A DNA stretch of 64,000 bases from Closterium sp. NIES-65 (lineage: Eukaryota; Streptophyta; Zygnematophyceae; Desmidiales; Closteriaceae): the NCBI GenBank assembly GCA_948144175.1, contig CANXME010000387.1:710501-774500 (forward strand), written 5' to 3'. Under the pieces are notes generated by a model. The model was not told the DNA's origin, did no database searches, and worked only from the letters and a program-made list of their open reading frames with translations. Shown in pieces: positions 9,682 through 44,561 of the stretch; the first letter of the stretch is position 1, and each line of letters opens with the position of its first letter. The position numbers and the translations under genes were made by a program.

Positions 9682-12600
9682 TGTCATACCACAAAATTTT
9701 CCCCAACCACAAAATTTCCCCCCAATATTGGAGATTAAGGTGAGTCACGTGTCACACATTTCACAAGGTCTCACACACACACATTACGTTCCTAGTGTAA
9801 CGCTTGGGGGGAGAGTCTACGGCATCATCAACACTCTTAGACGCGGTGGAAGAAGAAGAAGGAATGCTCGAGGAAGCCATAGCGGAGTTTAGGTGGTAAG
9901 CTAAGCTAAGACCTAAAACCTCTATGGGTTTACGAAAGAGAATTGGTGAGGGGAAAATGAGAAGCCACAAAAGGTTGCCATGCTAAATGTGCTTGGTGGT
10001 GGTGGGCTACAAAGGTTGGGATTCGTAGATGCTAAGTGGTTGAGAGGTCTGAGTGAAATTCAATTTTGGTTTAGTTGTTAGGGAATGTTAGGGGGGCTGG
10101 TTTTGAATGGCGAATTGGGCTTGGGGTGGGGAAATTTCGCAATTTCGACATTCGCGTCGAAATCGCGAATGCCAAAATCGCAATCGATTTTTTTTCGGGC
10201 TGCCCGAATTTTTTTTCGACGTGCGTCCTGCGTCCTAGCGTCCGGACGCTGCGTCCGGACGCAGGACGCAGCGTCCTAGCTGCGTCTTTCCGAACATAGG
10301 ACCCCAGTGCTTGGGCTCGGTCCTCTCATCATTCCTCTTGTCTCACTCACCTGCCTCTGTTGAAACCACCTGGGATTCACCTGGGCGTCAGGTGCACATC
10401 ATGGCAGTGCTGCTGAGCGTGGCCCTCTCCTCCAATCGCATCCTCGTGCCGCTGCCCGCCTCCTACGGCCGCGCCAACTCCTCCCATTGCCACGGTCAGT
10501 CACCCAGTGCCACGGTCAGTCACCCACCCTTGTGCTCGCACTCGCACCCCACCACCCGCACACCACCAGCCCCACACACCACCAGCCCCACACACCACCA
10601 GCCCCACACACCACCAGCCCCACACACTGCCGGCCCCACGGTGAGTCGCCCTGGGCTAGCCCAGCCCCGGCGAACATCTCCCTCACTACACCTGCTACCA
10701 CTGTGTCATCAACTCGTATTTCGCTTCCCTAGCCTTCCAAGTATTGCCTGTGCTGCTGTGCGACCTGTGCTGCTGTGCCACCTGTGCTCCTGTGCGACCT
10801 GTGCTGCTGTGCGACCTGTGCTCCTGTGCGACCTGTGCTCCTGTGCGACCTGTGCTGCTGTGCGACCTGTGCTGCGTTGCGACCTGTGCTGCTGTGCGAC
10901 CTGTGCTGCGTTGCGACCTGTGCTGCTGTGCGACCTGTGCTGCGTTGCGACCTGTGCTGCTGTGCCACCTGTGCTCCTGTGCGACCTGTGCTGCTGTGCG
11001 ACCTGTGCTCCTGTGCGACCTGTGCTCCTGTGCGACCTGTGCTCCTGTGCGACCTGTGCTGCTGTGCGACCTGTGCTGCGTTGCGACCTGTGCTGCTGTG
11101 CGACCTGTGCTGCGTTGCGACCTGTGCTGCTGTGCGACCTGTGCTGCTGTGCGACCTGTGCTGCTGTGCGACCTGTGCTGCGTTGCAACTCAGTGCATGT
11201 AGTGCGATAGATTTCGTTCATTAAACGAATCCAAAGCCACATCGAAGTGGTACACTATGCACACATCGAAGTGGTACACTATGCACACATCGAAGTGGTA
11301 CACTATGCACACATCGAAGTGGTACACTATGCACACATTCCTTCCTTCGGGAATGTCTCTCTCAAATCTTCGTGTATTCAAGAGACATCCTTATTCGCCT
11401 TGCTTCTGCTGCACCTTGATTGAACGCACGTTGCCAGAGAAGCTTCTCTGTTAAGCTACCTGGTTTGTCAATCAACATGACGCAATGGGCATGTAACACT
11501 GTTGATCACTTCATGATTTGAAGTTGGTGACTCGCATTCTCACTTGATGCAGAGGTACATGCGAATTCAGCCTTGAGGCACTGTTTACAAAATAGTTGAA
11601 AGGAGGTCTTCACATTCAAGCTCATGTCTCCTGCTACAGGCATACTGACATGACACCTCTGCTACAGGCATACTGACATGACACCTCTGCTACAGGCATA
11701 CTGACATGACACCTCTGCTACAGGCATACTGACATGACACCTCTGCTACAGGCATACTGACATGACACCTCTGCTACAGGCATACTGACATGACACCTCC
11801 GCTACAGGCATACTGACATGACACCTCTGCTACAGGCATACTGACATGACACCTCTGCTACAGGCATACTGACATGACACCTCTGCTACAGGCATACTGA
11901 CATGACACCTCTGCTACAGGCATACTGACATGACACCTCTGCTACAGGCATACTGACATGACACCTCTGCTACAGGCATACTGACATGACACCTCTGCTA
12001 CAGGCATACTGACATGACACCTCTGCTACAGGCATACTGACATGACACCTCTGCTACAGGCATACTGACATGACACCTCTGCTACAGGCATACTGACATG
12101 ACACCTCTGCTACAGGCATACTGACATGACACCTCTGCTACAGGCATACTGACATGACACCTCTGCTACAGGCATACTGACATGACACCTCTGCTCCGCA
12201 GTACCCACTCATGTCATGCCCAACGTTGTACCCACTCATGTCATGCCCAACGTTGTACCCACTCATGTCATGCCCAACGTTGTACCCACTCATGTCATGC
12301 CCAACGTTGTTCCCATCCTCATCCCCAACGGCTGCAACCACCCTCATGTCTCCTGCCGCCATCACACCAGTCACAAACAAACGCTTGACCGCAGGCATGC
12401 CTAATGCAATGCCCCACACGCCTCTCAACCCCCACTGCTCATCCCCCTCCGTCCGCCCCACCAGCCATGAGTCACGGCAGCTCCTGGTCCTGCTTCTTCG
12501 CCCCCATCGCCTCCCCTCTCTGCTCCCAAGAGGTCGCCCTCACCCTCTCCGCTAATCAACTACCGCCATGTGTCGCCCCAGCAGAGGGCTACAGGGCGGC

Positions 12601-21312: not shown

Positions 21313-21379
21313 TGGTATCAGAGCCCGTCGTTTCGATCAACCGAGCGCCACCACCTTCCTATCCTAGCACAATCCATCC

Positions 21380-28173: not shown

Positions 28174-28866
28174 TCATGGAACATTAATGAACACGAACCG
28201 CGACTGTCTTCTACCCCCAGTGCACCTCATCTCATCCAAAAGCTCAGCCCACTCATCCCCATGCATGCCCACGAACGCATCGCACTGCGCCGCCACCACC
28301 AGCCGTGCCATCCGCTCCCCATCCCCCCACCCATCTCCTCCCGCCTCCACTGCCCCGTCCATACTCCCTCCTCCGGCACCCTCGCTCCCACCACTCTCAC
28401 CACCACCCACTGTGCTGCCTGCACCGGCCGCAGGGGCAGCCGGCCCTATTGCAGCTGCAGCGCTCTCAGAAGCAGGGGAAGAGGACAGCGCTGCTGTGCC
28501 GGCAGCAGGGGCAGGTGGTGCTTGCTGCTGGAGGAGGTGGTGTGGGGTGGATGGCGAGGAGGGGAGGGTGGGTGGGGGCGAGGGCGAGGGCATGTAGAGG
28601 GTCCAGTCGGGCAGGTGCATGGTGTTGGGCGGTGGCAGCTGGGCAGGGGAGAGATGGGAGTAGGAAGGGGAAGGTTGGGAAGGAAGGGAGGAGCAGAATG
28701 AGAAGTGAATTCTTGTGTGGAATGAGCATGCTGAAGCCAGAACACTGCAGCCACACTCCTCTCTCGCTCTCGCCCATGGCCCTCACTACAATACCTACGC
28801 CCCAAATTACAATGCCCACACCACACCCAGCTTTGCCAGTGCCATGTGCACCCTCACCCTCACCCT

Positions 28867-29362
28867 CACCTACGCATGCCAGCTGACCCACATGTGCCTC
28901 ACCTGCGCATGCCAGCTGACCCACATGTGCCTCACCTGCGCATGCCAGCTGACCCACATGTGCCTCACCTGCGCATGCAAGCTGACCCACATGTGCCTCA
29001 CCTGCGCATGCCAGCTGACCCACATGTGCCTCACCTGCGCATGCCAGCTGACCCACATGTGCCTCACCTGCGCATGCAGCTGACCCACATGTGCCTCACC
29101 TGCGCATGCCAGCTGACCCACATGTGCCTCACCTGCGCATGCCAGCTGACCCACATGTGCCTCACCTGCGCATGCCAGCTGACCCACATGTGCCTCAACT
29201 GCGCATGCCAGCTGACCCACATGTGCCTCACCTGCGCATGCCAGCTGACCCACATGTGCCTCACCTGCGCATGCCAGCTGACCCACATGTGCCTCACCTG
29301 CGCATGCCAGCTGACCCACATGTGCCTCACCTGCGCATGCCAGCTGACCCACATGTGCCTCA
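28867..29362 (-). repeat. 33-bp minisatellite, about 15 copies, at the exon 7 donor of copy 2
   Basis: The minus-strand unit is GTGAGGCACATGTGGGTCAG plus CTGGCATGCGCAG. The first unit is the end of exon 7: VRHMWVSWHAQ aligns without gaps to the exon end of copy 3 (LRHAWINTESQ). Every unit ends CAG and is followed by GTGAGG, so each junction is a consensus 5' splice site. One unit is 1 bp short, near 29071. Confidence 0.92.
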
Positions 29363-30141
29363 CGTCCACATCGCTCAGCCGCAGCACACTCGCTGCCATC
29401 ACATGCACTCCCACTCCCATCCCTGATGACGTCAGCACACCTCTTCCTCCTCTTCCTTCCTCCCCTCGTCCTCCTCCACCAACCCCCGTGCCCCCACTCC
29501 CCCCCATCACCACGCCCACCATGGGTCGCACCACAAACAGCGGCTCCCCTCCTACTCGACCATACTCGCCCATCCCCACCCCTCTGCACCGCTCACTGCA
29601 CCTGTCGAACCCCCTCGCTCCCCACACTCGCGCCTCCAATCCCACCCCCATGCTGCTCGCCCTTGGCTGTGAGTCGGGATTTGATCCCGGAATCAGATCT
29701 AGCGTTGAAAGATCTGATGCTTCAGCTGACAAGGGGAGGTTCTGGGCGGCGGCTGGGCCTGCTGAGGTGGCAGCTACTGATTGGAGGATGGAGGCGTAGA
29801 TGGCTGGGAGGGAAGCAATGTGATTGGCCACGTGCATGCCATAGGCGGTGTGTCTCTGTTGGTTGATGACGTGGCAGAGATGGGCTGATGGCCACCTCAG
29901 CATGAAGCGCACCGCCTGCGCCCGCCACCAGTGCAGCTGAGGGAGGGGGCGAGGCGAGGGGGAAGGCAGAATAAATGGGCAGGGCACCCCATGCCCGCCA
30001 CCAGTGCACGTTGCTTGGGAGTTGGGAGGTAGAGGGGCCAAGACAAAAGCAAGAGTAAGGAGACTGCACAGGTGCACGGTGCCTGCCAGGCCAGCAGTGC
30101 ACATGGTGGGCAAGCATGAGGACAACTCATTGCTTATCAAC

Positions 30142-30538
30142 AGCCCACCAGCGGTGCCCACCAGCGGTGCCCACCAGCGGTGCCCACCAGCGGTGCCCAC
30201 CAGCGGTGCCCACCAGCGGTGCCCACCAGCGGTGCCCACCAGCGGTGCCCACCAGCGGTGCCCCACCAGCGGTGCCCACCAGCGGTGCCCACCAGCGGTG
30301 CCCACCAGCGGTGCCCACCAGCGGTGCCCACCAGCGGTGCCCACCAGCGGTGCCCACCAGCGGTGCCCACCAGCGGTGCCCACCAGCGGTGCCCACCAGC
30401 GGTGCCCACCAGCGGTGCCCACCAGCGGTGCCCACCAGCGGTGCCCACCAGCGGTGCCCACCAGCGGTGCCCACCAGCGGTGCCCACCAGCGGTGCCCAC
30501 CAGCGGTGCCCACCAGCGGTGCCCACCAGCGGTGCCCT
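30142..30538. repeat. 13-bp minisatellite, about 30 copies, in intron 6 of copy 2
   Basis: The unit is CCAGCGGTGCCCA, nearly perfect, with a single +1 insertion near 30262. All six frames are open, which produces spurious ORFs. It begins about 250 bp after the proposed exon 6 donor in transcript order. Confidence 0.93.
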
Positions 30539-31387
30539 TCATTGTGCCGCGCAAAGGTGGCCTCGTTGCCAGGGTAGACAGGAGGGGTGGATGGAGCGGC
30601 ATGGATCAACAGCAAGTGGGAGGACTCCACCACTCAGACACACGGATGCTTTGCAAGTAGCACACCGGCACTTGCATGCCCAAGGAACCGTCACCGCTCA
30701 GCACCATTCATCACCAGTCACCGTTTTTCACCAGTAATCGTTTTCCACAACTCACAGAATGCTCGTTTCCGTGCCCCACGTACCTGCTGTCTGAAATCAT
30801 CTGTGGGTGGCACCTCCCCCAGATACTCCCTCTGTGCCTGCTGCTCCAGATGCGGCCTTCCCCAGCTGGCGGGAGAAAAGGCAGGCCACGGGGCGAAGAG
30901 GCACAGGGGGTACAGGGGGGTGGGTGAGCAGGATGGGATGAGGGGGTATGGGGGAGAGATAGAGAGGGGCACGGTAGTGTGAGCAGGCACGCAGAGAAGC
31001 AAGGCAGCGCAGCGCCAATCAGTGAGCACAGGCAGCATGGATGGAATAGAACTCCTGTGTCACTACAATACATACACCATATACAAGTATAGCACATAAG
31101 CTACAGAGATCAAACACGTACATTTTGGTTACTCGGGCCTCCACCGATGAGAGAGCAGCACTGCTGGATTGGTCCACGTCAGACACATCCAAACACACCA
31201 CCCTATCTGCTGACGTGGCCAGCTGCTCGAACTGAGAGGTGTCGCTTTGACATGGCGGCATGCGACTGGCTGCCATAGCAGCGCTGATGTCAGCAGAGCA
31301 GTGAGGGGAGGCGATGGGGAAGAAGAAGCAGCCCCAGTCGCCCACGCTACCATCGCTGCCCATGCCGCCCATTGGCTGGAACTCTGC

Positions 31388-31419
31388 CATGCCATGCCAT
31401 GCCATGCCATGCCATGCCA
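31388..31419. repeat. Pentanucleotide tract abutting the exon 5 acceptor of copy 2
   Basis: The minus strand reads (ATGGC)n running directly into the acceptor ATGGCAG at 31390-31384, so the AG of the splice site lies inside the last repeat. Confidence 0.85.
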
Positions 31420-31499
31420 TATTATTCCAATCCATGCCATCCAACGCCAGGATATACAAGAACACAACCTCATGCCATGAGTAGATTGTGTGTGATGTG

Positions 31500-31850
31500 A
31501 AGAGGACACACTAGAGCCATTGTGAGGAGCGGGGCCAGGCTTTCGGAAATCCATACGAGCCAGGGACGCCACACGGATGAACAGGCGGCACAGGGATGAA
31601 CAGGCGGCACAGGGATGAACAGTATCGGAATCGGGGGGGGGGGGGGGGGGAATAAGCTTCTAAGCTTAGAGAATGGGATGCGTTTCGGAAGGCAGTAGCC
31701 CTAACCTGCCTAGTGATTGGGGCTAGTGCCCCTTCAAGCACAAGCACGTTCCCAAAAAGTTTTGATCCTTTCATTTTCTGCACTTTCACGGAACTACTGC
31801 TTCGATTGAAGTTGTCAAACACTCACATGATGACTTGGGGACGTACGGTC
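31500..31850. other. Part of intron 4 of copy 2 with G-homopolymer and short repeats
   Basis: Contains a short direct repeat (GATGAACAGGCGGCACAGG, near 31575-31610) and a run of about 19 G near 31635. No element ends are recognised. Confidence 0.5.
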
Positions 31851-31885
31851 GCATGCATGGCGCCCACCCACACGTGCTGCCTGCA

Positions 31886-32113
31886 CTGTCAACGGTGCCC
31901 ACCTGTCAACGGTGCCCAGCTGTCAACGGTGCCCACCTGTCAACGGTGCCCACCTGTCAACGGTGCCCACCTGTCAACGGTGCCCAGCTGTCAACGGTGC
32001 CCACCTGTCAACGGTGCCCAGCTGTCAACGGTGCCCAGCTGTCAACGGTGCCCACCTGTCAACGGTGCCCAGCTGTCAACGGTGCCCAGCTGTCAACGGT
32101 GCCCAGCTGTCAA
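31886..32113 (-). repeat. 17-bp minisatellite, about 13 copies, starting 8 nt into intron 4 of copy 2
   Basis: The minus-strand unit is GTTGACAGCTGGGCACC, or a variant with GACAGGTGGGCACC. The array starts eight bases after the exon 4 donor (GCAGAG/GTGCGTG at 32122/32121). The second variant makes a CAG/GTGGG donor-like junction. Confidence 0.92.
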
Positions 32114-32224
32114 ACACGCACCTCTGCACACCTGGTTGTTGGCTGGCTGGAAGGTTCCTGGAAGTGGCACGAGGGTTCTGTTGTGGAGCATGGCGAGGGC
32201 GAGCAGCGCCGCCATTCCGTGCAG

Positions 32225-32600
32225 CTGAGGGCGATGGGGATGGGAGCGATGGGGATGGGGGCGATGGGGATGGGGGCGATGGGGATGGGGGCGATGGGGA
32301 TGGGAGCGATGGGGATGGGGGCGATGGGGATGGGGGCGATGGGGATGAGGGCGATGGGGATGGGGGCGATGGGGATGGGGGCGATGGGGATGGGGGCGAT
32401 GGGGATGGGGGCGATTGGGATGGGGGCGATGGGGATGGGGGCGATGGGGATGGGGGCGATGGGGATGGAGGCGATGGGGATGGGGGCGATGGGGATGGGG
32501 GCGATGGGGATGGGAGCGATGGGGATGGGGGCGATGGGGATGGGGGCGATGGGGATGGGGGGCGATGGGGATGGGGGGCGATGGGGATGGGGGGCGATGG
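32225..32600 (-). repeat. 15-bp minisatellite, about 24 copies, abutting the exon 4 acceptor of copy 2
   Basis: The minus-strand unit ATCGCCCCCATCCCC forms a C-rich pyrimidine tract that ends in the acceptor GCCCTCAG at 32225. The array therefore supplies the polypyrimidine tract of intron 3. ORFs such as (GDGDG)n or (PSPPS)n are artefacts. Confidence 0.92.
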
Positions 32601-33283
32601 GGATGGGGTTGTGGTGAGGGGCATGCAGGGTGCGGGTGGTGAGGAGGAGTGAGGGGCGAGGATGGTGGGTATGACAGGCTGCCAAGCACAGAGCAGGTGG
32701 GCGGAGTGAACCGCCACCGCACCCACACTTCCAATTGCTCAACCTCCCCCTACTGCAGTTGCGCCACAAGGTTCCGACACGCAGCCCAAGTCAAACCCTC
32801 GTGCAAAAAATACGAAACGCACAACACCCAAGTTCCGACGCCTCGCTGACGTCGCCAACCACGCCGACGAAATTACAGCCCCATGATCGAATTCGCTCGC
32901 CGCCCAATCCCGCATCGCAATCAATCTCTGAGTTTTCACGGCAAGGTTCATTTCTAAGGGGTTGAGTTACCAAAAAGATATTCAGAGTGTCGTGACTCGG
33001 TAGTGCGAATCAATTTGTGAATGCATCCTATAGGATTGTATTTGGATGGGCTTGAGGGGCGAGGGCGGTGGGGTTGAGGGGGAGGTGGATGGGGGTGAGG
33101 GGACAGAGGAGTTAGGGAGATGGGATGAGGAAGGAAGAAGGCGAGGTGCGGTGGATGGAGGGCGAGGTGGAAAGGGTGCATGGGGACGCGGATGGGATGG
33201 CATGATAGCAGCACATGATGAGCGCGCACACACCAGAAAAGCACATGGAGTGCGGCTGAGACACACGTCAACACAATAGAGGA

Positions 33284-33426
33284 GCACCTGAGGGCAGGTG
33301 GAGAGGCACCTGAGGGCAGGTGGAGAGGCACCTGAGGGCAGGTGGAGAGGCACCTGAGGGCAGGTGGAGAGGCACCTGAGGGCAGGTGGAGAGGCACCTG
33401 AGGGCAGGTGGAGAGTGGAGAGGCAC
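33284..33426 (-). repeat. 22-bp minisatellite, about 6 copies, starting at the exon 3 donor of copy 2
   Basis: The minus-strand unit is GTGCCTCTCCACCTGCCC plus TCAG. Exon 3 ends ACGTCAG and the intron begins GTGCCT; each later unit also ends TCAG and is followed by GTGCCT. The unit's CTCCACCTGCCCTCAG equally resembles a 3' splice site, so each junction is both donor-like and acceptor-like. Confidence 0.92.
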
Positions 33427-33589
33427 CTGACGTGCAAGGGAGAAGCGAGAGGCGTCAGGCCAAGGCGCAACCAGCAGGCGCCTGTCCTGGCAGCCACGTG
33501 GCGGCATCTGATTGGTCCATATGTCCCTTTGTGCCTCCCTTGTGTGCGCCAGGCTGTCAGCATCTGAGCCGCGCACCTGCCATGCCATA

Positions 33590-33912
33590 GGGTGAGGGGA
33601 CATGCCATGGGGTGAGGTGAGGGGACATGCCATGGGGTGAGGGCACATGCCATGGGGTGAGGGCACATGCCATGGGGTGAGGGGACATGCCATGGGGTGA
33701 GGGCACATGCCATGGGGTGAGGGCACATGCCATGGGGTGAGGGGACATGCCATGGGGTGAGGGCACTTGCCATGGGGTGAGGGGACATGCCATGGGGTGA
33801 GGGCACTTGCCATGGGGTGAGGGCACATGCCATGGGGTGAGGGCACATGCCATGGGGTGAGGGCACTTGCCATGGGGTGAGGGCACTTGCCATGGGGTGA
33901 GGGCACATGCCA
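33590..33912 (-). repeat. 20-bp minisatellite, about 16 copies, next to the exon 3 acceptor of copy 2
   Basis: The unit is GAGGGCACATGCCATGGGGT on the plus strand, with G/C and T/A variants in a few units. It ends about 14 bp from the exon 3 acceptor (ATGGCAG at 33577). The last partial unit, CCTATGGCATGGCAG, contains the acceptor. Confidence 0.9.
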
Positions 33913-33939
33913 TGCCGCCACCAGGGGGCAGAGGCGCGC

Positions 33940-34125
33940 AGGGAGGGGCAGCAGGGAGGGACGGCAGGGAGGGACGGCAGGGAGGGACGGCAGGGAGGGA
34001 CGGCAGGGAGGGACGGCAGGGAGGGACGGCAGGGAGGGACGGCAGGGAGGGACGGCAGGGAGGGACGGCAGGGAGGGACGGCAGGGAGGGACGGCAGGGA
34101 GGGACGGCAGGGAGGGGCAGGCAGA
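33940..34125. repeat. 13-bp minisatellite, about 14 copies, in intron 2 of copy 2
   Basis: The unit GGCAGGGAGGGAC is nearly perfect and purine-rich on the plus strand (pyrimidine-rich in the sense of the gene). Confidence 0.9.
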
Positions 34126-34414
34126 AGGTGACGAGGGTGCTGCTGTGTGGTCGGGATGGGGCATGAGGGCAATGGGAGGGGTAGTGCGCTCCGAGCAGAG
34201 GAGGAACGGCACGAGGAGAGTAGGGCAGCAAGCACAGAGGAGAGACAGGGCGGAGAGAGGAACGGAGGGAAGTGCAGAAACTGGAGAAAGGAGGAGCAAG
34301 GCAGGAGCTGACAGGTGCGGTGTAGCACGGTGCAGAGCGGCACGGCTCGGATCAAGCAGCGCTGTGGCAGGAGGGCTGTGGCGCTGTGAGTAGAGCCTGG
34401 GATGGAGAAACTGG

Positions 34415-34630
34415 AGTGTGACTATACCCACGGTGTCTGTGACTATACCCAGGGTGTCTGTGACTATACCCAGGGTGTCTGTGACTATACCCAGGGTGTC
34501 TGTGACTATACCCACGGTGTCTGTGACTATACCCAGGGTGTCTGTGACTATACCCAGGGTGTCTGTGACTATACCCAGGGTGTCTGTGACTATACCCAGG
34601 GTGTCTGTGACTATACCCAGGGTGTCTGTG
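34415..34630 (-). repeat. 21-bp minisatellite, about 10 copies, starting at the exon 2 donor of copy 2
   Basis: The minus-strand unit is CACAGACACCCTGG (14 nt matching the exon end) plus GTATAGT (7 nt of intron). The real exon ends ACACCCTGG at 34617, matching the PPW/GT boundary of copies 1 and 3, and each further unit repeats exon end and donor. Confidence 0.93.
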
Positions 34631-35045
34631 GCGAGCAGTGGCAGCAAGAGGGCTGCACCGCCCATTTCGGCAAACCCCCCTCCCCTTCCCCTCCGCCTCC
34701 CCCTCCGCTCCGGTCCTCCGCGATGAAGCGGTAGAACGACGCCTGCGCGCAGTCCTCCAGGTGCGGGGCTGGCGGAACGTTCGCGGGGAGTGCGAGTGGG
34801 GAGGGGGGGAGCGCAGAGCGCGGGTCGTCCGCGAGGCCGTACGCGGCGGTCCACGCGCGGAACAGCGACATGCCGTGCTCCATTGCGCCCGCCTCGCCCG
34901 CCACCGCGCTCGCGAGTTGCACGGCGGCACATGCGCAAATGCAGAGGCAGAGCGGCGACGGTATTGTGAAGGTTGTTGGCGACGCTTTCGGGCGATGCGG
35001 AGGCCCATCGCCGTGCGGCGTGTGACGCGCGGTGTTTCTGTGCAT

Positions 35046-35834
35046 GGCGGCTGCGTGAAAGGTGCGCCGCTTTATGCGGCGCCCTGTGCAGCGAAGCAAG
35101 TGGGTCAGGCGATCGTGTGGGATCTGAAAGTTACCAGCGAAAACCATTCAATAATGGCAGCTACGTGACGAAATTGCAATGGGAAATGAAACGAGGAGGG
35201 CTTGTACAGTACGCGGTGCGGATCTGTGCTTCCTTCCCCGTTCGTTTTGGAAATCACGATCAATTCGTATCCAATATGCGTTTCTCTGGAAGTTGAAGGA
35301 TCATTCACGAAGCATCGCGAAGGTGCACGAAAGTTGTCTAAGCGAGTCATCTGTTGCTTGTGATTTCGCAATCTTCATTGCGGTAGAACCACCAGCAACC
35401 ACTTGGTGCTGCTGGATCGCCTCATCCCGAAGGTCCCAAAGTCCCCTGCTTCAAGTGGTTGAGTACGATAATGTGCAATCCTGAGCAGGTTCCTCACTTC
35501 ACCACTCTAAACCGCGCTACTGCGCAGCCTGAACATTCATGAAAAGCTCGTGGACGAACTTTCAGTCATCTATGTGCCAATTCATTTATTGAATGAATTC
35601 ACTTCATTCAAATCACCGCGTCAGAAACAATCTTGTTAGGCCGCCATAGTGTATACTCCTCGCACCGACGCCCATCCGCGCCTGTCGCTGCGACTTCTGC
35701 CGATTAGCCCCACGCCCGCTCATCTCGAGCCAGGCCGCACCTCGACCACTGACATCGATTCCGTCTCGTGATCGCCACTCTCCGTGCCTTGCTTTCGCGC
35801 CGCGCCTCGCCGTGACACTCAAGTGCGCGCGGCC
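35046..35834. other. Interval between divergent genes (copy 2 and HIKESHI)
   Basis: About 790 bp separating two divergently transcribed starts, so probable promoters of both. No canonical TATA placement was confirmed. No other gene seen. Confidence 0.5.
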
Positions 35835-36574
35835 ATGTTCGGGGTGCTCTTCCCCAATCGCAGTTTCCCTTTGGACGTGTCGCGTTTCAAGCAGGTCGAC
35901 ACCTTCCATTGGGTGCTCGAGATGAACATGTTTGTAGGTAAGCTTTTCAATAAGTAGGCCATCAAGCTTTTTTTTTTACTTTAATACCCTTATAGTGTCT
36001 CAGCAGGACACCCGCAGTTAGCAGCTTCCTCTACCTACGCCGGTCCCTCAATCAAGCATGATCCTTTGCGCCACATGTCCTGTCAATCCACGTGGCAGGC
36101 GACGCGTATGACCAGGTGAAGGAGATATGCATCTTTCTGCTCAACGAGGCGGCCCTGCCGCCAGGCCAGGCGCTCGCCGTGTACGTGCAGGCGCCCGGCT
36201 CGCCCTTCGAGTACCGCGGCGCCGTCCACCTCGGCTGCCCCTCCGCCGTCCTCCCCCTCCTCTGGCCGCCCGCCGTCGCCCCTACCGGCGCCGTCCTGCC
36301 GGCCTTGCCGCCCGGCGGCGTCCCCCCGACGGCGCAGATCGGCATTTCGGTGGAGCCTCTAGCATCGCTGCCGCTGCAGAGCGTGGGGTGGCAGCGGCGG
36401 GTGGAGGAGATGGCGCTGAAGGTGGGGCAGAACCTGTTCAACTACATGCAGTCGTTCAGCACCGTGCAGGGTTCCATGCTGCTCGTCCCCTCCGATATTC
36501 TCGACCGCTGGTTCAAAAAGTTTCAGGATAAAGCGAAAATGGACCCTGATTTTTTGAATAGGTTTAATGTATAG
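35835..36574 (+). CDS. HIKESHI: HIKESHI (OPI10) family nuclear-import carrier
   Basis: Two exons: 35835-35937 (ends GTTTGTAG before GTAAGC) and 36099-36574 (after CGTGGCAG), phase 1, about 192 residues; human HIKESHI is 197. It begins MFGVLFPNRSFPLDVSRF, like the MFG start of the family. AQIGISVEPL in the C-terminal part matches the highly conserved AQIGISVELL of HIKESHI, and WFKKFQDKAKMDPDF matches the C-terminal WYENFQRRLAQNPLF. In animals the protein carries ATP-bound Hsp70 through nuclear pores during heat stress; plant homologues are known. The middle is Pro/Ala-rich and GC-rich. The only low-copy housekeeping gene I recognise here, and intact. Confidence 0.9.
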
Positions 36575-36952
36575 CCGGCTGCTCCCCTGCAGCACTGTGG
36601 CATCTGTGCTCCGCAATGTGTCCGACTTGCTGCTTCTCTCCCTTGTTCTGCACCGTGCCATCCCCTCTCCCGTGTGCATGCATGTGCATCCGTTACTTTC
36701 CCACACATGCCATGGCTTGCCTTGGATGCATTTATGCCGCTTCCTGCCCACCCATCATCTCCCTCCTACCCCAGCCCCGCTCTCCCCGCCATCCCTCAAC
36801 CCTACGGTCGTCTGACTCGCGCCTCTCAGCCTCCAGACTCCTCCCATCCTACACTCCACTCCACCAGCCCCCCTTGCAGTCTTGCTCAACCCTCCCTCCT
36901 GCTGCTGCCGTTCCTCTCCCACTTCTGCCATCATTGCTCGCTCGTGTGTCTC

Positions 36953-38181
36953 CGCACTCCTCCACACCTGTCAGCCACTCCTCCACACCTGTCAGCCACT
37001 CCTCCACACCTGTCAGCCACTCCTCCACACCTGTCAGCCACTCCTCCACACCTGTCAGCCACTCCTCCACACCTGTCAGCCACTCCTCCACACCTGTCAG
37101 CCACTCCTCCACACCTGTCAGCCACTCCTCCACACCTGTCAGCCACTCCTCCACACCTGTCAGCCACTCCTCCACACCTGTCAGCCACTCCTCCACACCT
37201 GTCAGCCACTCCTCCACACCTGTCAGCCACTCCTCCACACCTGTCAGCCACTCCTCCACACCTGTCAGCCACTCCTCCACACCTGTCAGCCACTCCTCCA
37301 CACCTGTCAGCCACTCCTCCACACCTGTCAGCCACTCCTCCACACCTGTCAGCCACTCCTCCACACCTGTCAGCCACTCCTCCACACCTGTCAGCCACTC
37401 CTCCACACCTGTCAGCCACTCCTCCACACCTGTCAGCCACTCCTCCACACCTGTCAGCCACTCCTCCACACCTGTCAGCCACTCCTCCTCACCTGTCAGC
37501 CACTCCTCCTCACCTGTCAGCCACTCCTCCTCACCTGTCAGCCACTCCTCCTCACCTGTCAGCCACTCCTCCTCACCTGTCAGCCACTCCTCCACACCTG
37601 TCAGCCACTCCTCCTAACCTGTCAGCCACTCCACACCTGTCAGCCACTCCTCACCTGTCAGCCACTCCTCACCTGTCAGCCACTCCACACCTGTCAGCCA
37701 CTCCTCACCTGTCAGCCACTCCTCACCTGTCAGCCACTCCTCACCTGTCAGCCACTCCTCACCTGTCAGCCACTCCTCACCTGTCAGCCACTCCTCACCT
37801 GTCAGCCACTCCTCACCTGTCAGCCACTCCTCACCTGTCAGCCACTCCTCACCTGTCAGCCACTCCTCACCTGTCAGCCACTCCTCACCTGTCAGCCACT
37901 CCTCACCTGTCAGCCACTCCTCACCTGTCAGCCACTCCTCACCTGTCAGCCACTCCTCACCTGTCAGCCACTCCTCACCTGTCAGCCACTCCTCACCTGT
38001 CAGCCACTCCTCACCTGTCAGCCACTCCTCACCTGTCAGCCACTCCTCACCTGTCAGCCACTCCTCACCTGTCAGCCACTCCTCACCTGTCAGCCACTCC
38101 TCACCTGTCAGCCACTCCTCACCTGTCAGCCACTCCTCACCTGTCAGCCACTCCTCACCTGTCAGCCACTCCTCACCTGTC
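36953..38181. repeat. Compound minisatellite: 21-bp then 18-bp related units, over 1.2 kb
   Basis: 36953-37620 has about 32 copies of ACTCCTCCACACCTGTCAGC plus C (21 bp, a few CTCA variants). 37620-38181 has about 30 copies of the 3-bp-shorter form ACTCCTCACCTGTCAGCC (18 bp). The switch passes through mixed units (37618-37700), showing the short unit arose by deletion of 3 bp from the long one and then expanded separately. It starts about 380 bp after the HIKESHI stop. Confidence 0.95.
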
Positions 38182-38697
38182 AGTGCACATCGCCTACCGG
38201 CACTTGTCTCTCTCACCCACTGGGCCTCTGCCCATCCCCTTCCCACCTTCCGCCAGCCATCATTTCCGCAGCCACTAATTTTCCCGTCCACAGACATTCA
38301 AATCAGGTGCGCTCAGCCCATATCAATACGCGCCAAAACAATACGCAACGGTGATATCAACAAAACAAAATGAGGTGCCAACTGGACGGAATGAGTAACA
38401 GTCTGATAAAACAAATGGTGGACATACTGCAGAGCGTTTTTCGCTGGGTGTACAAATCATCACTTTAGCATGTATCGAGATTTGCGCATTTAGTGACGTT
38501 CGGATCCTCTGCATTCCGAGCAAGCCAAGAAAACATTCGTCCACTCTTTCCCAAGCGCGCTGTGCGGACCGTGCTTCTATGCCACGGTCGTGCAACCACC
38601 CCGCTGCGGTTGCGCCCTTCCCCATCCACATGCGCCTGATGCCCGTGCGCTCGTTACGGTGACGGCACGCTGGAACGCCTCGCGCGTGTCCGCCGCT

Positions 38698-38781
38698 GCC
38701 CGCGTCACCCGCGCAGAGCCACCCGCGCAGAGTCACCCGCGCAGAGCCACCCGCGCATAGTCACCCGCGCAGAGCCACCCG
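38698..38781. repeat. 16-bp tandem repeat just upstream of copy 3
   Basis: About five copies of GAGCCACCCGCGCAGA and variants (GTCACCCGCGCA), ending a few bases before the proposed ATG at 38788. They would lie in the promoter or 5' UTR of copy 3. Confidence 0.8.
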
Positions 38782-38787
38782 CCTGCC

Positions 38788-41700
38788 GTGGCGGCGGAAC
38801 GCGTCGCTGCGCGCATGGCGTCCCGCCTGGCGGCGCGCGCCCTCCCGCCGTCAGCACCACAGTCGTGGCTGCGGCTTCTCGCGGCGGCGCTTCTCGTGCT
38901 GCTGGTGGTGGCGCGCACGGCTCCGCGTGGTCTGGCGGCGGGGTTGCGCGAATTCTCCGTGGGCGGAGAGGCGGGCCCCGAGCACGTCCTCTCGCTGTAC
39001 CGTGTTGAGTACCCCCTCGCGTTCTTCCCCCTCCCTGTGCATCGTTCCCCGTGTCCTCGTTGCCACTTGCCTTGCCCAAGTGATGGCGCGAAAATTTATC
39101 GTCCGCCCTCCCACTCTTACGTTTCCCCTTTCCCCTCTCCTCCCTTCCGTTCCATTCCCCTCCTCTGCCATCGGTCCTCCCCCGCTCTCTCCTCCCGCTT
39201 CCCCACCTACCCTTCTCCTTCCCGCAGGCCTGGGCGGACGCCTACGGGCTCTCCGCCGACTCGCTGCTTCCGCCCTCGCCCCTCTCCCTTCCGCCCTCCC
39301 TCCCCCCCGCCCCTCATCTCGAGGACTGCACCGCGCTCACAGCGCTGCGCCAGCAGGCGGAGCAGCGGGGGGAAGGGGGGGAGCTCCCCCTATGGGCGGA
39401 GCCCCTAGACTCGTGCAACCCCTCGCCTCACCCCCCTTGGGTACGCCACTTGGTACCCTGCCCACCTCCCCTTTCCCCTCCCCCACCCTCCCCTTCCGCC
39501 TTTGTCACCCTCCCACCACCTCTGATGTTCCTGCCTCCCTCCTTTGCCATCCCGCCATCACTCCCCCCTCCTCCCCCACCCAACCCTCTGTTACCCATCG
39601 CGATTTTAAACCGACTCAACCCCCCCCCCCCCCCCTCCCCCCTGCTGCCCATCCCTACACCCAACCCCCCGTCACCATGCAGGTTCGCGGGACGGACGTG
39701 GCCAATCTGGCGATGACACGTGTCGTGCAGAGGGACATTTGGGCGAACCAGTTCCCAGGCGGCACTTGTGCGGACAGGCGCCTGCTGGTGGTGTCGTGGC
39801 CGCCCGACTTCCAGCATGGGGTGGGGTCGCAGGTACGCGCGTGCTTGTGAGTGTGTGTGTGGGAAGGCGGACAGGGGGACACACTGACAGGTGCATGTGA
39901 TGTGATGTGATGAGTGCTCTCCTCCCTCCCCTCCATGCTCCCACTCACAGGTGCATGTGATGTGATGAGTGCTCTCCTCCCTCCCCTCCATGCGCACATG
40001 CATGCACAGGTGCATGTGATGACGTCATTCCTCAGCATAGCCATGCGCCACAATCGCACACTCGTGCCCGACCCTTTGAACTACAACCGCGCTTACACGG
40101 ACCAGTGCGCAGGTGAGGCGCGGTCACAACATAGTCATGCGCAGTGCTCACCACTCTGTCATCCCCATTGACATGCACGCCCATGCCTATCACCCTCAAC
40201 TCCCTTGCTTCATGTCCGTCCGCCCACCCCACACCCATCACACTGCCTCTCCACTCCATTGCTATCCCACGCGTCGTGCTCGCTGCTGCACTTCTCGTAC
40301 CCATCCCGTGACCATCCATAGCTTCTTGCTGTACATCTATCTGCTCTTGCCCCAGATCACTCGCAAGGGAATGAAACCTTTTGAGTCGACTCAAAAGTCA
40401 TCAGCGGTGCCTCTCCTCCGCCCTCACCATCCTCTTGGCCCAGACATGGGCAAGGCAGGGCAGTGGGACTGCTACTTCTTCCCGATCGTGGCGCCGGACT
40501 GTGAGCACGTGGTGATGGCTGCCAAGGACGCCAACAACGTGGTGTGGGGCAAGGAAGGCGTGGGGGCGCTGTGTGCATCGCAGCACCGCGTGGTGGGCGT
40601 GGAGGGCATGCCGTACCTCGACCTCGACCACGAGGCCTCCGCTGCCCTGTGCGTGGGGGAGTGCGTGGGGGAGTGCGTGGGCAGCGGGGCACGAGTGCAT
40701 GCGTGAGTGAGTGCGTGAGTGCGTGAGTGAGTGCGTGAGTGAGTGCGTGAGTGAGTGCATTGGGGAGGTGCATTCACGACTGGAGGGCATGCCGTACCTC
40801 GAGCTCGAGCACGAGGCCAGCATTGCCCTGTGCGTGCATGACTGCATGGGATGGGGGAGTGCATGGGATTGGGGAGTGTATGGGATGGGGGAGTGCATGG
40901 GATTGGGGAGTGTATGGGATGGGGGAGTGCATGTGTGAGTACACACGTGCATAGTATTGGACCTCAAATTGAACCGGTTGGACTTCGTTCGTTTGTTTTG
41001 AAGCCAAAACTGATCAGCTTGAACCAACTGCAGTTCGAATCGAAACAGTTGGTTGAGTTGGCCTTATATAGCCGAGGCGCGTCTATGGAGAATGTTTTTT
41101 TAAGGGAGAGCTGAATTGCGTGGGACGCACAGTCAGATTTCTGGCAATGATTCTTGACAGAGTGTTGGAATGCCTTGGTAGAATTCAAGCATAATTTCAC
41201 TACAATTTTTTGATAGAACAAGATTATGGTACATGGAAGGAGAACCAAATAGCAAAGACAAAAAACCCTGGAGAAACGTACCTCGACAAGCTAACACCTT
41301 TGCCGAGTCAGAAATGGCAAGTGAAACGACAAGCACATGTCTTTCACCTGAATTGGCAGTTTCTCAGGTTTACAACTTTCAGAGTTATTTGCGGTTTTAC
41401 TGTTAGTAAAAACATGCCTCAGGTTCAGATTCCTTACTGATTCGAAATTTCATGGGGAGTACAATTTTCGAAATGCTCTGATTGGTCGAAATTTGTTGTT
41501 TCGCGATTTGTCGAAATTCGTGCACATTGCAAAATTCGGAGACAAGTAATTTCGGACGACCAGAATCGCTCTGCTCGACAATGCCTCTTTCGAGCTTAAA
41601 GCTCGCGGCCCAAATTGTTCAACCTTAGTAAGGTTGACCTTTGGGTGGTGGGAGAAGAAGTTGACTTGTTGGGAGTTGGGCTGTTTCCTTTCGCCCAGTT

Positions 41701-44561
41701 TCGCGCTAGACCCTTGGGGTTTTCGTTGACACGGCAAACCCCTGGGAGCAACCTGGGTTTGCTTCGAGAGTCCCAAATTGCAATCAACATATTGTTGTTC
41801 CCTGCTCTCCCATTCGACAAAAAAATACTGGCCAATCAGATTGCATCTCACTTCTCGTAACCACCCTTCGCAACCCAAACAGCACTCAAAACATCACCCC
41901 CGTCAACCTTAGTAAGCTTGGCCAGCGCGCCCCGCAATTTGGGCCGCGAGCTTTAATTCTGTCTAAACTTTGTTTTCTTCAATTCCGTCGACCCGCGAGG
42001 CTGGATTTCGACGCCGATTTCCTCACGTCGACAAGTGCCTCGTCGACGTGCAGTTGCGTGGAGCAGAAACAACACTTCAATTTCGACGAATTAATTTCGT
42101 CGAAAATCGACCCGTCGCACAGAGATTAGAGTCCCAGATAGAAGTTCCCGAAGTCGCCGATGACCACGAAATGAACACCGTTGTGCTCCGAAAAGCATGG
42201 CCGACTTTGCCCAAGCGAGGGCGGGGCCTTTTCTGTTGAACCGAACCAATCCAGCCTCATGGCGGACAGGTCATTCGTGAAACTGGCAAGTACACCGCCC
42301 CGTCCTGCTGACTGTGTGGCTTTGCTCACACACCACCCCCCAGCTGGGAAACCGTTGCTGTGGTGCATTGAGATGCTTCCTTACTCTCCTTCCTCATCCC
42401 GCCATCCCTCCCTTTCCCTCTTTCCTCCCTCCCTCTTCTCTCAGGCAGTGGGGGCGGCCACACTTGGGCCGGCCCAGCACGGTGTGGTTCCCCCCGGGCG
42501 CCGCGGCCAACGATGACAGGACCCCTCAGGTGCGCACAACATAAAAAAGCTTCTCACATGGTCACAACAGCACTTGATTCGTCGCCATGCTCAGCCATCA
42601 GCACCTGCACTGCACTGCTGCCAGGCACACGGTGCGCCTCTGCGCTTGCTTAATGGCTTTTTCTGTTTTCGCCCCTCCCCCTCCTTCCGCCGCTCTCAAT
42701 GACATGAAGGTGCGCTGGTGGGGGGCACATTGTTCAACTGTGCACTTGCGGATTCTTTTTCTTGCTCTCACCCCTCCCCGCCACCCCCCCCAGGACATTA
42801 AGGTGCGCTGGTGGCGGGTGCAGGTGGCGGACATCAACAGCGAATTTCTCAAAGCTGTTTTCACTCAATCCATGAATTCGCCTCCCACCTCTCTCCCTTC
42901 CCCCCACTGAAGGTGCACTGGTGGCGGGCGCAGGCGGTGCGCTTCATGCTGAGGTGGCCATCAGCCCATCTCTGCCACGTCATCAACCAACAGAGACACA
43001 CCGCCTACGGCATGCACGTCGCCAATCGAATCGCTCGCTTCGCCGAAACCCAATCAGATTTGATCGCTGCAATCAAAGCCACCTCTCACAACAGCACCAG
43101 CAGAGCCGCCAGCACAAACAGTACCCCGGGCACCAACAGCAGGAACAGCAGCACCAGCGCCAGCACCGAGAGCAGCGATGGCAGCCTGCCTGCGGAAGCG
43201 GCAGCAGTGGGTGGCATGTCATTTGCATCGCCTGGCGTGCGCGCCGTACTGGCTCGCGCACCCTGGCCGTTCCACTCCCCGGCCCCCTCCCTTGCCCCGG
43301 ACCGCCAGCAAGCAGCACTGGGAGAGGGGGTGCAGGGCGTGGGGATGGGTGGTGAGGCTGTGGGGGAATCGGGCAGTGGTGGTTGGAGGCGGTGCGATGC
43401 GGAGGGAGGAAGCAGTGGCCGTGCTGCCGAGGCTGTCAGCAGGCTGGCTGGTGAGGTGAGGCGAGGAGAGGAGAGGCGAGGAGAGGAGAGGCGAGGAGAG
43501 GAGAGGAGAGGCGAGGAGAGGAGAGGAGAGAAGAGGAGAGGAGAGGCGACGAGAGGAGAGGCGAGGAGAGGAGAGGAGAGGAGAGAAGAGGAGAGGAGAG
43601 GAGAGGAGAGGCGAGGAGAGGAGAGGAGGGATGAGGAGAGGGGGGTTGAGAAAAGCAACTGCGGAGGTGAATGAGGTGCTCAATCCCATTTCATGCGGAA
43701 CAGCATGCTGAAGCAACCCCACTGCCCCTCTCCATCTCCTTGTGCCCCCCTCTGATCGAGCAGGTGGCCCATGAGGCATACATGGTGCGACCGCTGGTGG
43801 CAGTGCATGTGAGGGGCAGCGACAAGGAGGAGGAGATGGGGCTGCTGGGGCTGCCCGTGTACATGTACTTCGCCCACCAGCTCCGCCTGCTGCTGCCCGA
43901 CCTCAGGCACGCGTGGATCAACACCGAGTCCCAGGTGCTTGCTGCATGGCGCCCTCACATGTGCTGCATGGCGCCCTCACATGTGCTGCATGGCGCCCTC
44001 ACATGTGCTGCATGGCGCCCTCACATGTGCTGCACAGCGCCTTCACATGTGCTGCACAGCGCCCTCACACACACCGGAGCACATACGTGCACATGCGAGT
44101 GCATGTGCTCTTGTTCGCCTTAGTTTTTCTTCACTTCCACCATGCAAGGCACGTGGCAGCATGCCTGCACATGTGTGTATCCAGTGAGCTGCAGGAATGT
44201 TTCTAAGTAAGTGGTTCACCCCACCGTTTCCCACCGTTAGCGGTTTCTCCGTGAATGATGTCGTATTCCCACATGTCCACACCCATCACGTCAGGCTGTG
44301 ATTGACAGCCTCACCTCGTACCGCGAGTGGACGTTTCTCTACAGCAGCAACGCGCGGCAAGCATCCTCTTCCAACAACACGAGGGAGTACGACGACAAGC
44401 AGTCCGTGGCGGCCAGCTTTGCCAGCCTTCTCATAGCGTCGCAGGCTGACGTGTTCATCGGCACTCTGGGCTCCAATTGGAGCCGCCTGATGAATGAGCT
44501 GCGCTCCACCAATGGCCGGCTCTTCAACACGTTCATTGCACTCAATGATGGGGAGTGGTGA
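38788..44561 (+). CDS. Alpha-1,6-fucosyltransferase-like (GT23-like) protein, copy 3, 9 exons
   Basis: Exons: 38788-39003, 39228-39440, 39683-39832, 40010-40112, 40444-40648, 42445-42529, 42913-43455, 43764-43934, 44295-44561. All phases agree, giving about 650 aa. The N-terminus has a strong signal anchor (WLRLLAAALLVLLVVA), fitting a type II Golgi enzyme. Key motifs: GVGSQVH and RTLVP (exons 3-4), QWDCYFFPIVAPDC (exon 5), HWWRAQAVRFMLRWP (exon 7a), AVHVRGSDKEEEMG and HAWINTES (exon 7b; compare HVRRTDK and RVYLATDD in FUT8), DVFIGTLGSNWSRLMNELRS (exon 8). Compared with copy 1 it has one additional intron inside exon 7. Exon 2 is nearly identical to that of copy 1, whereas exon 1 is unrelated beyond the last residues. 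Substrate unknown; GT23 placement rests on motifs. Confidence 0.78.
39885..40020 (+). repeat. About 60-bp repeats carrying the exon 4 acceptor and exon start of copy 3
   Basis: ACAGGTGCATGTGATG occurs three times (about 39889, 39947, 40007), each after a C/T-rich stretch. Only the last continues into exon 4 (GTGCATGTGATGACGTC). The first two are duplicated 3' splice sites plus the first exon bases. Confidence 0.85.
40649..40940 (+). repeat. Donor-anchored repeats and duplicated exon 5 end in intron 5 of copy 3
   Basis: Intron 5 starts at 40649 with GTGCGTGGGGGA repeated three times in part, then (GTGAGTGC)-type repeats (40703-40760). At about 40786-40838 lies a second, mutated copy of the last 50 bp of exon 5 (GGCATGCCGTACCTCGA ... 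GCCCTGTGCGTG). After that come further repeats of GGGGGAGTGCATGGGAT. Confidence 0.83.
41600..41952. mobile_element. 353-bp MITE with TTAA target duplication (piggyBac-like)
   Basis: Perfect terminal inverted repeats of 18 bp (AGCTCGCGGCCCAAATTG and its reverse complement) flanked by TTAA on both sides (41596-41599 and 41953-41956). Subterminal CAACCTTAGTAAGGTTG repeats occur at both ends. TTAA duplication suggests a piggyBac-type source, although the TIR does not start with the usual CCC. It is non-coding and lies in intron 5 of copy 3. Confidence 0.8.
42699..42912 (+). repeat. Two partial duplicates of the exon 7 start in intron 6 of copy 3
   Basis: GACATGAAGGTGCGCTGGTGG near 42700 and GACATTAAGGTGCGCTGGTG near 42794 both resemble the real exon 7a start (CACTGAAGGTGCACTGGTGG at 42905-42924), each preceded by a C/T-rich run. 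Together with 42913 this makes three acceptor-plus-exon-start copies at a spacing of about 90-120 bp. A similar decoy lies in copy 2, near 30010-29996. Confidence 0.8.
43456..43645 (+). repeat. GAGGAGAGGC purine repeat starting at the exon 7a donor of copy 3
   Basis: Exon 7a ends GGTGAG at 43455 and the intron begins GTGAGGCGAGGAGAGG. Irregular GAGGAGAGGC/GAGGAGAG repeats then run for about 190 bp. This array starts at the donor itself. It is a strong polypurine strand and may form a triplex. Confidence 0.85.
43935..44065 (+). repeat. 22-bp minisatellite, about 5 copies, starting at the exon 7b donor of copy 3
   Basis: The unit is GTGCTGCATGGCGCCCTCAC plus AT. The first unit is the intron start (CCCAG/GTGCTTGCTGCATGG at 43934/43935), so the array phase coincides with the splice donor. 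Confidence 0.88.

What the first reader, a model, noticed from the sequence alone, without database searches (positions are those of the whole stretch)
28867..44065. Minisatellites anchored at 5' splice sites across a paralogue family
In the three GT23-like genes many introns begin with a tandem array that starts at, or within a few nt of, the exon/intron junction, and the unit often contains exon end plus GT donor. Copy 2: exon 2 (34617, unit of 14 exon + 7 intron nt, about 10 copies), exon 3 (33427, 22 bp), exon 4 (32122, array from +8), exon 7 (29331, 33 bp, about 15 copies, each CAG/GTGAGG). Copy 3: exon 5 (40648), exon 7a (43455), exon 7b (43934). Copy 1: exon 3 (31 bp x2), exon 4 (20 bp x2). 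Units are unrelated to each other, so the position rather than the sequence recurs. Inference: slippage or repair events seeded at donor sites repeatedly lengthen introns and create ladders of alternative donors.
Basis: partly seen in the sequence, partly recalled or inferred. Interest (0 to 1): 0.88.

Follow-up and report, generated by a model that had tools for sequence, protein, structure and literature searches.

The report
Exon-end duplications lengthening introns in Closterium
In a freshwater green alga, DNA repeats pile up against the ends of exons because pieces spanning the exon-intron border keep getting copied into the intron, leaving rows of spare splice sites; copying of this kind is known, but this density is unusual and shows one way introns can grow.

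Summary
The window is from the desmid Closterium sp. NIES-65. Spliced alignment to Closterium proteins puts 9 of 21 donors of the three GT23-like genes within 15 nt of, or inside, a tandem array. Acceptors are weaker (19 of 106, P = 0.05). Short-unit arrays straddle donors (10) far more than acceptors (1). Ladders hold up to 33 near-identical donors; three donor arrays differ in copy number between closely similar segments.

The arrays are part of something wider. Introns also hold longer imperfect 'echoes' of the neighbouring exon end: donor side 27 of 106, acceptor side 22 of 106, controls 0 of 106 and 0 of 370. Small samples of chaperonin (8 of 19) and kinesin (2 of 4) introns show the same. 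Best reading: frequent tandem duplications, of which those keeping an intact outer splice site survive, lengthen introns. A donor-specific trigger is possible (excess about 1.5-2.2-fold) but unproven; some echoes look protein-conserved; use of inner sites is not shown.

The parts
8266..8340 (+). Copy 1, exon 3/intron 3: 31-bp unit x2.4 straddling the donor (first intron base 8287), 2 donors
10483..10526 (+). Copy 1, exon 4/intron 4: 20-bp unit x2.2 straddling the donor (10495), 2 donors
14589..14685 (+). Copy 1, intron 7: acceptor-side echo of the start of exon 8 (72 of 84 aligned nt identical, with six gaps)
28864..29363 (-). Copy 2, exon 7: 33-bp unit x15.2 = last 11 codons of the exon (VRHMWVSWHAQ) with the donor; 15 donors CAG/GTGAGG; first intron base 29330
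31886..32113 (-). Copy 2, intron after exon 4: 17-bp unit x13.4, array from about +8 of the donor taken as 32121
33284..33415 (-). Copy 2, intron after exon 3: 22-bp unit x6.0, array from +11 of the donor (33426)
33581..33914 (-). Copy 2, same intron as the exon-2 array: 20-bp unit x16.5 ending 4 nt before the acceptor (acceptor-side array)
34417..34630 (-). Copy 2, exon 2: 21-bp unit x10.2 (14 exon + 7 intron nt) straddling the donor (34616), 10 donors; the unit read through holds an in-frame TAG
39900..40021 (+). Copy 3, intron 3: 55-bp unit x2.1 straddling the acceptor (last intron base 40009)
40649..40758 (+). Copy 3, exon 5: 12-bp unit x9.3 starting at the inferred donor (40649)
40781..40829 (+). 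Copy 3, intron 5: echo of the end of exon 5 with its donor (43 of 49 identical), followed by a second, different array at 40843-40933
43453..43641 (+). Copy 3, exon 7a: GAGGA unit x37.8 beginning at the donor (43456); no intron was found at this place in copy 1
43940..44069 (+). Copy 3, exon 7b: 22-bp unit x5.9 from +5 of the donor (43935)

Best explanation
Introns in this alga grow by recurrent tandem duplication, from about 12 bp up to a few hundred bp. A duplication that spans an exon-intron junction is tolerated because the outer splice site stays intact: a donor-spanning event leaves the first donor and puts the copied exon end plus donor into the intron; an acceptor-spanning event leaves the last acceptor. 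Short-unit events then expand by slippage or unequal exchange into minisatellites (donor ladders); long-unit events become diverging echoes of the exon end. Short units straddle donors but hardly ever acceptors, most simply because extra AGs just upstream of the real acceptor would be spliced to first, while extra donors downstream of the real one are not used. Shown: the anatomy, the positional excess, copy-number differences, recurrence in other genes. Inferred: the mutational mechanism, the role of selection, and that the outer sites are the ones mainly used.
For: Donor-side arrays 29 of 106 introns vs null 13.3 +/- 3.1 (0 of 4000 simulations reached it); outside the window 20 of 85 vs 10.0 +/- 2.7. 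Array 5' edges: 22 at -15..+14 of donors, 6.9 per kb, against 1.3-2.5 per kb further into the introns. Units contain exon end + donor; ladders of 2-33 donors. Echoes: donor side 27 of 106, acceptor side 22 of 106; reverse complement 0 of 106 on each side; non-adjacent exon ends of the same gene 0 of 370 on each side. 22 of the 27 end exactly at the junction with GT next; 17 of the 22 begin exactly at it with AG before. Chaperonin: 8 of 19 donors, cross-pair control 0 of 342. Kinesin: L079 duplicates exon tail plus intron head, L080 a short stretch across the donor. Copy number at donor arrays differs in 3 of 5 pairs of similar segments: 32.7 vs 24.7, 30.8 vs 41.8, 87.2 vs 15.1. Short-unit straddles 10 donor vs 1 acceptor, P = 0.012. 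The strain's own models use the outer donor at L040 introns 3, 4, 6 and L039 introns 3, 4, and the outer acceptor at L040 introns 1, 3, 6 and L039 intron 3.
Against: The filter model alone underpredicts junction-spanning long events: observed donor/acceptor/internal 33/25/18; expected 21.8/19.1/35.1 with the most generous correction and 12.7/11.8/51.5 with none. Exon/echo mismatches lean to third codon positions (69/67/174), more than my rough hand estimate for a freely decaying echo; 37 of 49 echoes align without any indel, frame-breaking ones being confined to about 10; in chaperonin L066 all 9 differences within 102 nt of the junction are at third positions, and the kinesin L079 echo reads as nearly the same peptide. 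Some echoes may therefore be or have been coding, or stem from a diverged copy. Inner sites are used in some annotated models: L039 intron 1 at its echo acceptor, L039 intron 2 at a donor 33 nt on; P0003, P0074, P0002 and P0011 read into ladders or echoes. No RNA evidence was available here.
Confidence: 0.58

Rival explanations
1. One reading: a mutational process is seeded at donor sites (slippage or repair at or just after the 5' splice site, for example from R-loops or G-rich intron heads), so position itself is hot.
For: Sharp peak of array starts at -15..+14 of donors; donor excess over the filter model, strongest among young long events (identity >= 90%: 12 donor, 4 acceptor, 5 internal; expected 5.4/6.0/9.6 at best; >= 85%: 18/6/10, expected 9.1/9.4/15.5); several donor-flush units are G-rich on the sense strand.
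Against: Acceptors also show array edges (19 of 106) and long echoes (22 of 106); 100 of 148 arrays are intron-internal; the donor/acceptor asymmetry has a simple selection explanation; young-event numbers are small.
Confidence: 0.2
2. Echoes and ladders are functional: alternative donors, acceptors or exon ends kept by selection, used to vary the protein or as spare splice sites.
For: Third-position lean of exon/echo differences, 9 of 9 in L066; 37 of 49 echoes align without indels; 22 of 27 donor-side echoes end exactly at the junction with GT next; 8 of 13 donor-straddling units are multiples of 3 against 36 of 100 internal (P = 0.07); P0011 (Naga37s-1) contains three copies of an exon-7 end (by eye); the own model of L039 uses an echo acceptor.
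Against: 24 of the 28 indels seen break frame; of seven in-frame short ladder units two carry a stop within the first unit; the own models use the outer site at the nine other echo-bearing sites checked in L039 and L040; the annotation relied in part on reads mapped to a repeat-masked genome, so it is weak evidence either way.
Confidence: 0.16
3. No special process: minisatellites fill introns, non-essential sequence between an array and the exon is lost by deletion, so arrays end up flush against both splice sites.
For: Array edges crowd both ends (12 within 0-14 nt on each side); arrays make up about 37% of intron bp.
Against: Does not explain units that contain exon end + donor, ladders, two-copy straddling duplications at donors, or long exon echoes.
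Confidence: 0.06

Closest known systems
Internal tandem repeats at exon-intron boundaries of human segmental-duplication paralogues (De Grassi & Ciccarelli 2009, PMC2812944; outline and found passages read)
   Same: Minisatellite units at exon-intron boundaries in recently duplicated paralogues, variable in copy number, proposed to make alternative or new introns.
   Different: There 27 intron modifications in a genome-wide human set, most with RNA support; here 29 of 106 introns of one algal family carry a donor-side array, mostly at introns shared by paralogues, together with long echoes; no RNA support.
[quoted passage not shown] 2016, PMC4974935; found passages read)
   Same: Tandem duplication that includes splice-site sequence; units with AG/GT; multi-copy cases such as the 24-bp repeats in fission yeasts described there.
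   Different: Most introns here sit at positions shared across paralogues, so they were already present; the duplications lengthen them and add inner sites. Two introns that look paralogue-specific (copy 3 exon 7a/7b; L052 intron 6) could be gains, untested.
Novel intron positions in Drosophila by sliding or tandem duplication (PMC2891723, found passages read)
   Same: Partial exon duplication with proto-splice sites; duplicated sites could allow intron position to shift.
   Different: A few events found by comparing 12 species; here dense, within one genome, without clear position change.
Introner elements
   Same: Repetitive sequence tied to splice sites.
   Different: Dispersed families of similar introns; here units are unrelated and, within a gene, each echo matches only its own neighbouring exon (0 of 370 non-adjacent).

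Membership tests
Tandem repeats at exon-intron boundaries (De Grassi & Ciccarelli type) | Tandem array overlapping an exon-intron boundary | tested here: met
   13 of 148 arrays straddle a donor with at least 6 nt of exon
Tandem repeats at exon-intron boundaries (De Grassi & Ciccarelli type) | Copy number varies between closely similar paralogues | tested here: met
   A donor array differs in 3 of 5 pairs; other donor arrays in the pairs are unchanged
Tandem repeats at exon-intron boundaries (De Grassi & Ciccarelli type) | Changed or alternative transcripts | not testable with these tools
   No RNA reads or cDNA; annotated models disagree
Intron gain by tandem duplication | Unit carries AG/GT so that adjacent copies supply donor and acceptor | tested here: met
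   For some units only, e.g. CAG/GTGAGG at 28864-29363 and the L052 intron 6 unit
Intron gain by tandem duplication | Intron absent from relatives | tested here: not met
   Most array-bearing introns sit at places and phases shared by the paralogues (judged by eye); two possible exceptions not pursued
Introner elements | Similar intron sequence at many unrelated sites | tested here: inconclusive
   Units differ and echoes match only the adjacent exon within a gene, 0 of 370 non-adjacent; no whole-genome search for each unit was done
Mutually exclusive or tandem duplicated exons | Echo keeps an open frame | tested here: inconclusive
   37 of 49 echoes align without indels and 174 of 310 mismatches are at third positions, but 24 of 28 indels break frame
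Mutually exclusive or tandem duplicated exons | Echo spliced into mRNA | not testable with these tools
   No RNA data

The most novel reading that the evidence does not exclude
Splice junctions, donors above all, are true hotspots for tandem duplication in this genome: a junction-linked process (co-transcriptional breaks or slippage, with a typical unit of about 100-200 bp) keeps copying exon ends and donors into introns, making this a main route by which introns lengthen and a continuous source of spare splice sites and spare coding exon ends.
Probability: 0.2. Interest if true: 0.85.

Novelty: new variant of a known kind. Interest (0 to 1): 0.6.

Why it matters
How introns grow and how new splice sites arise is usually reconstructed from rare, old events. 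Here one genome shows what look like all stages at once, from two-copy duplications over a donor to ladders of over 30 donors to diverged echoes: in the 18 genes examined 61 of 106 introns have an array or echo at one end or the other. That makes junction-spanning duplication rates, the donor/acceptor asymmetry and the fate of spare donors measurable, and warns that gene models of this genome need care at exon ends, since the annotation used reads mapped to a repeat-masked genome, beside de novo transcripts.

Tried and rejected
Choosing proteins for spliced alignment by raw summed tblastn score gave poor choices for repetitive loci; replaced by coverage-weighted choice among 30 hand-picked cleaner proteins. 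A first null that let arrays overlap (donor null 10.55) was replaced by a non-overlap null that allows 20 nt of straddle. A bare density comparison of long duplications looked 8-10-fold enriched at junctions; allowing for available start positions, arrays and detection it falls to 1.5-2.2-fold at donors, so I do not claim the larger figure. Frame preference of ladder units (8 of 13 vs 36 of 100, P = 0.07) is only suggestive. Unit length of long duplications clusters at 100-200 bp (45 of 59, median 152; the list was compiled by hand, leaving out five second events in the same intron and two 84-bp array-like ones; with those 45 of 66); no mechanism is offered. A fourth family (actin) did not complete.

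Counting choices: the 106 introns are those with at least 3 of 6 proteins agreeing and at least 60 bp long; the six of copy 2 were set by hand. One intron in a variable region (L040, 4633-4761) is probably not real but was kept. Of the loci matched, 15 beyond the window were fetched and used, plus 5 similar partners; the others were not seen in full. Chaperonin: 20 snippets fetched, 19 tested for donors (L074 left out, being acceptor side); L060 and L062 look like echoes by eye but fell below threshold and are not counted. Kinesin: 11 introns chosen among those of roughly 160 bp or more, 5 fetched; L081 seems to be coding throughout, leaving 4. These two samples are small and not random.

I therefore lowered the best explanation from 0.62 to 0.58 and raised the functional rival from 0.12 to 0.16.

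Literature: nine answered searches on Closterium, intron gain, tandem arrays, minisatellites and exon duplication listed no paper that by title or opening of abstract describes this pattern in Closterium; only four papers were opened. The library lacks most subscription journals.
Full report
WHERE IT IS FROM. The window lies in an 874-Mb, 2400-contig assembly. Contig lengths there equal those given for proteins of Closterium sp. NIES-65 (C387, 1,580,465 bases, is the contig of protein P0074), so the organism is taken to be the desmid Closterium sp. NIES-65 of the C. peracerosum-strigosum-littorale complex. The genome paper (PMC10407611; outline, found passages and its gene-prediction section read) gives mean introns of 485-554 bp in the four genomes tabulated and an annotation built from reads mapped to repeat-masked sequence plus de novo transcripts, so gene models need care at arrays. 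All 77 proteins listed by the homology search, which scored only the 8000 nearest candidates, are from Closterium strains. Three of four scanned match FUT8 (PF19745), below the curated cut-off. 'GT23-like' is fair but not proven.

CHECKING THE EXON ENDS. I wrote a spliced protein-to-DNA aligner and ran it with Closterium proteins. Copies 1 and 3 are well supported, except exon 5 of copy 3, where the donor is weak, the NIES-64 model reads on into the array (P0003) and two of six proteins prefer the echo donor 181 nt downstream. Copy 2 is more diverged: its exon-7 end rests on P0014 and the own model P0074, and its exon-4 end is 32117 by all six proteins, 32121 by the own model.

IS IT MORE THAN CHANCE? 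I fetched 15 more paralogues (L039-L053) and accepted 106 introns in 18 genes with at least three proteins agreeing (copy 2 by hand). TRF arrays (score at least 50, period at least 5) numbered 148 over these introns. Against random non-overlapping placement, donors with an array within 15 nt or across them were 29 of 106 (null 13.3 +/- 3.1, 0 of 4000 simulations); window 9 of 21 (3.3, P = 0.0013); unseen paralogues 20 of 85 (10.0, P = 0.0008). Acceptors: 19 of 106 (13.4, P = 0.05); window 5 of 21 (P = 0.22), others 14 of 85 (P = 0.10). Donor straddles 16 (7.9, P = 0.0025), acceptor straddles 5 (7.9, P = 0.92). Array starts peak sharply at -15..+14 of donors. At acceptors array ends gather 0-29 nt upstream, some of them pyrimidine-rich (5 of 14 flush units are at least 80% pyrimidine). 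Counting units under 60 bp with at least 6 nt of exon, straddles are 10 at donors and 1 at acceptors (P = 0.012).

ANATOMY OF THE LADDERS. Units that straddle donors contain exon end plus GT and, in 12 of 13 cases, repeat it: 10 donors at copy 2 exon 2, 15 at copy 2 exon 7, 10 at L042 intron 3, 8 at L046 intron 2, 30 at L051 intron 4, 33 at L052 intron 3. Two-copy cases lie at copy 1 exons 3 and 4. Five pairs of closely similar segments of the assembly (93-99.8% over the main aligned blocks) were compared: donor arrays differ in three pairs (84-bp unit 32.7 vs 24.7 copies, 19-bp 30.8 vs 41.8, 13-bp 87.2 vs 15.1), while the 21-bp (8.1), 22-bp (2.0) and 17-bp (5.3) donor arrays of the other two pairs are unchanged.

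THE WIDER PATTERN. Looking for copies of each exon's last and first 90 nt inside the adjacent intron, I found donor-side echoes in 27 of 106 introns and acceptor-side echoes in 22 of 106 (score at least 50). Controls were empty: reverse complement 0 of 106 on each side, exon ends of introns at least two places away in the same gene 0 of 370 on each side. 22 of the 27 end exactly at the junction with GT next, and 17 of the 22 begin exactly at it with AG before. Long duplications have units mostly of 100-200 bp (45 of 59 in a hand list). With arrays and echoes together, 46 of 106 introns are marked at the donor, 35 at the acceptor, 61 at either.

OTHER GENES. The chaperonin family (PF00118) was sampled with 20 short snippets: 8 of 19 donors have an echo in the sequence downstream, cross-pair control 0 of 342. 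Kinesins (PF00225), 5 snippets, 4 with an intron: L079 duplicates exon tail plus intron head, L080 a short stretch across the donor, two show none (donors placed by eye). Both samples are small and not random.

ARE THE ECHOES FUNCTIONAL? Differences between exon and echo fall 69/67/174 on codon positions 1/2/3. There are 28 indels in 12 of the 49 echoes, 24 of them frame-breaking; 37 echoes align without an indel. In chaperonin L066 all 9 differences in the 102 nt before the junction are at third positions. A relic decaying beside a constrained exon should show some third-position lean; this seems larger than my rough hand estimate, so a part may be or have been coding, or stem from a diverged copy. 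Own annotated models use the outer donor at L040 introns 3, 4, 6 and L039 introns 3, 4, and the outer acceptor at L040 introns 1, 3, 6 and L039 intron 3; against that, L039 intron 1 is spliced at its echo acceptor and intron 2 at a donor 33 nt further on (set). The Naga37s-1 model P0011 holds three copies of an exon-7 end (by eye); the NIES-65 locus it fits best, L053, has at least one echo there. Copy 2 exon 2 cannot read on to its second donor without meeting a stop.

SEEDED AT DONORS, OR FILTERED BY SELECTION? If duplications fell anywhere and only intronic or junction-spanning ones survived, the expected donor/acceptor/internal split of the 76 long events would be 12.7/11.8/51.5, or 21.8/19.1/35.1 after excluding arrays and halving the detectability of internal pairs; observed 33/25/18. 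For identity of at least 90%: observed 12/4/5, generous expectation 5.4/6.0/9.6. So junctions, donors most, keep an excess of about 1.5-2.2-fold that survival alone does not explain, on small numbers. The avoidance of acceptors by short units fits the rule that the first suitable AG after the branch point is used (established knowledge, not tested here).

VERDICT. The mechanism best supported is frequent tandem duplication plus tolerance of junction-spanning copies. Donor seeding is possible, not shown. Use of ladder donors and echoes is open. Similar events are known one at a time or in small sets (PMC2812944, PMC4974935, PMC2891723; passages read); the nine searches named under Tried and rejected listed no report of this density.

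Noticed in passing
window 21368-26836: A single 1822-aa open frame that reads like the polyprotein of a Copia-type retrotransposon, with similar flanking stretches near 20815-21330 and 26890-27380 (by eye; label recalled, no search made).
   Followed up: no
window 35834-36571: Likely Hikeshi/OPI10-like gene between copies 2 and 3; the Naga37s-1 model P0004, which carries PF05603, joins such a gene to a relative of copy 3.
   Followed up: no
window 43456-43763 and L052 6834-7150: Introns that look specific to one paralogue lineage, both with an array at the donor; possible array-born introns.
   Followed up: partly
G000:C511:712945-713361 and G000:C1052:556971-557362: Kinesin exon copies lying close together on opposite strands.
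   Followed up: no
L066 (G000:C1794:176540-177250): Chaperonin exon end and its echo differ at 9 places in 102 nt, all third codon positions: a candidate for a coding echo or a copy from a diverged relative.
   Followed up: partly
window 14040: Copy 1 exon 7 ends at a GC donor (CAG/GCGAGT), with no array near it.
   Followed up: no
window 36955-38183: A 63-copy array of about 20-21 bp between the Hikeshi-like gene and copy 3, so arrays are also long outside introns.
   Followed up: no
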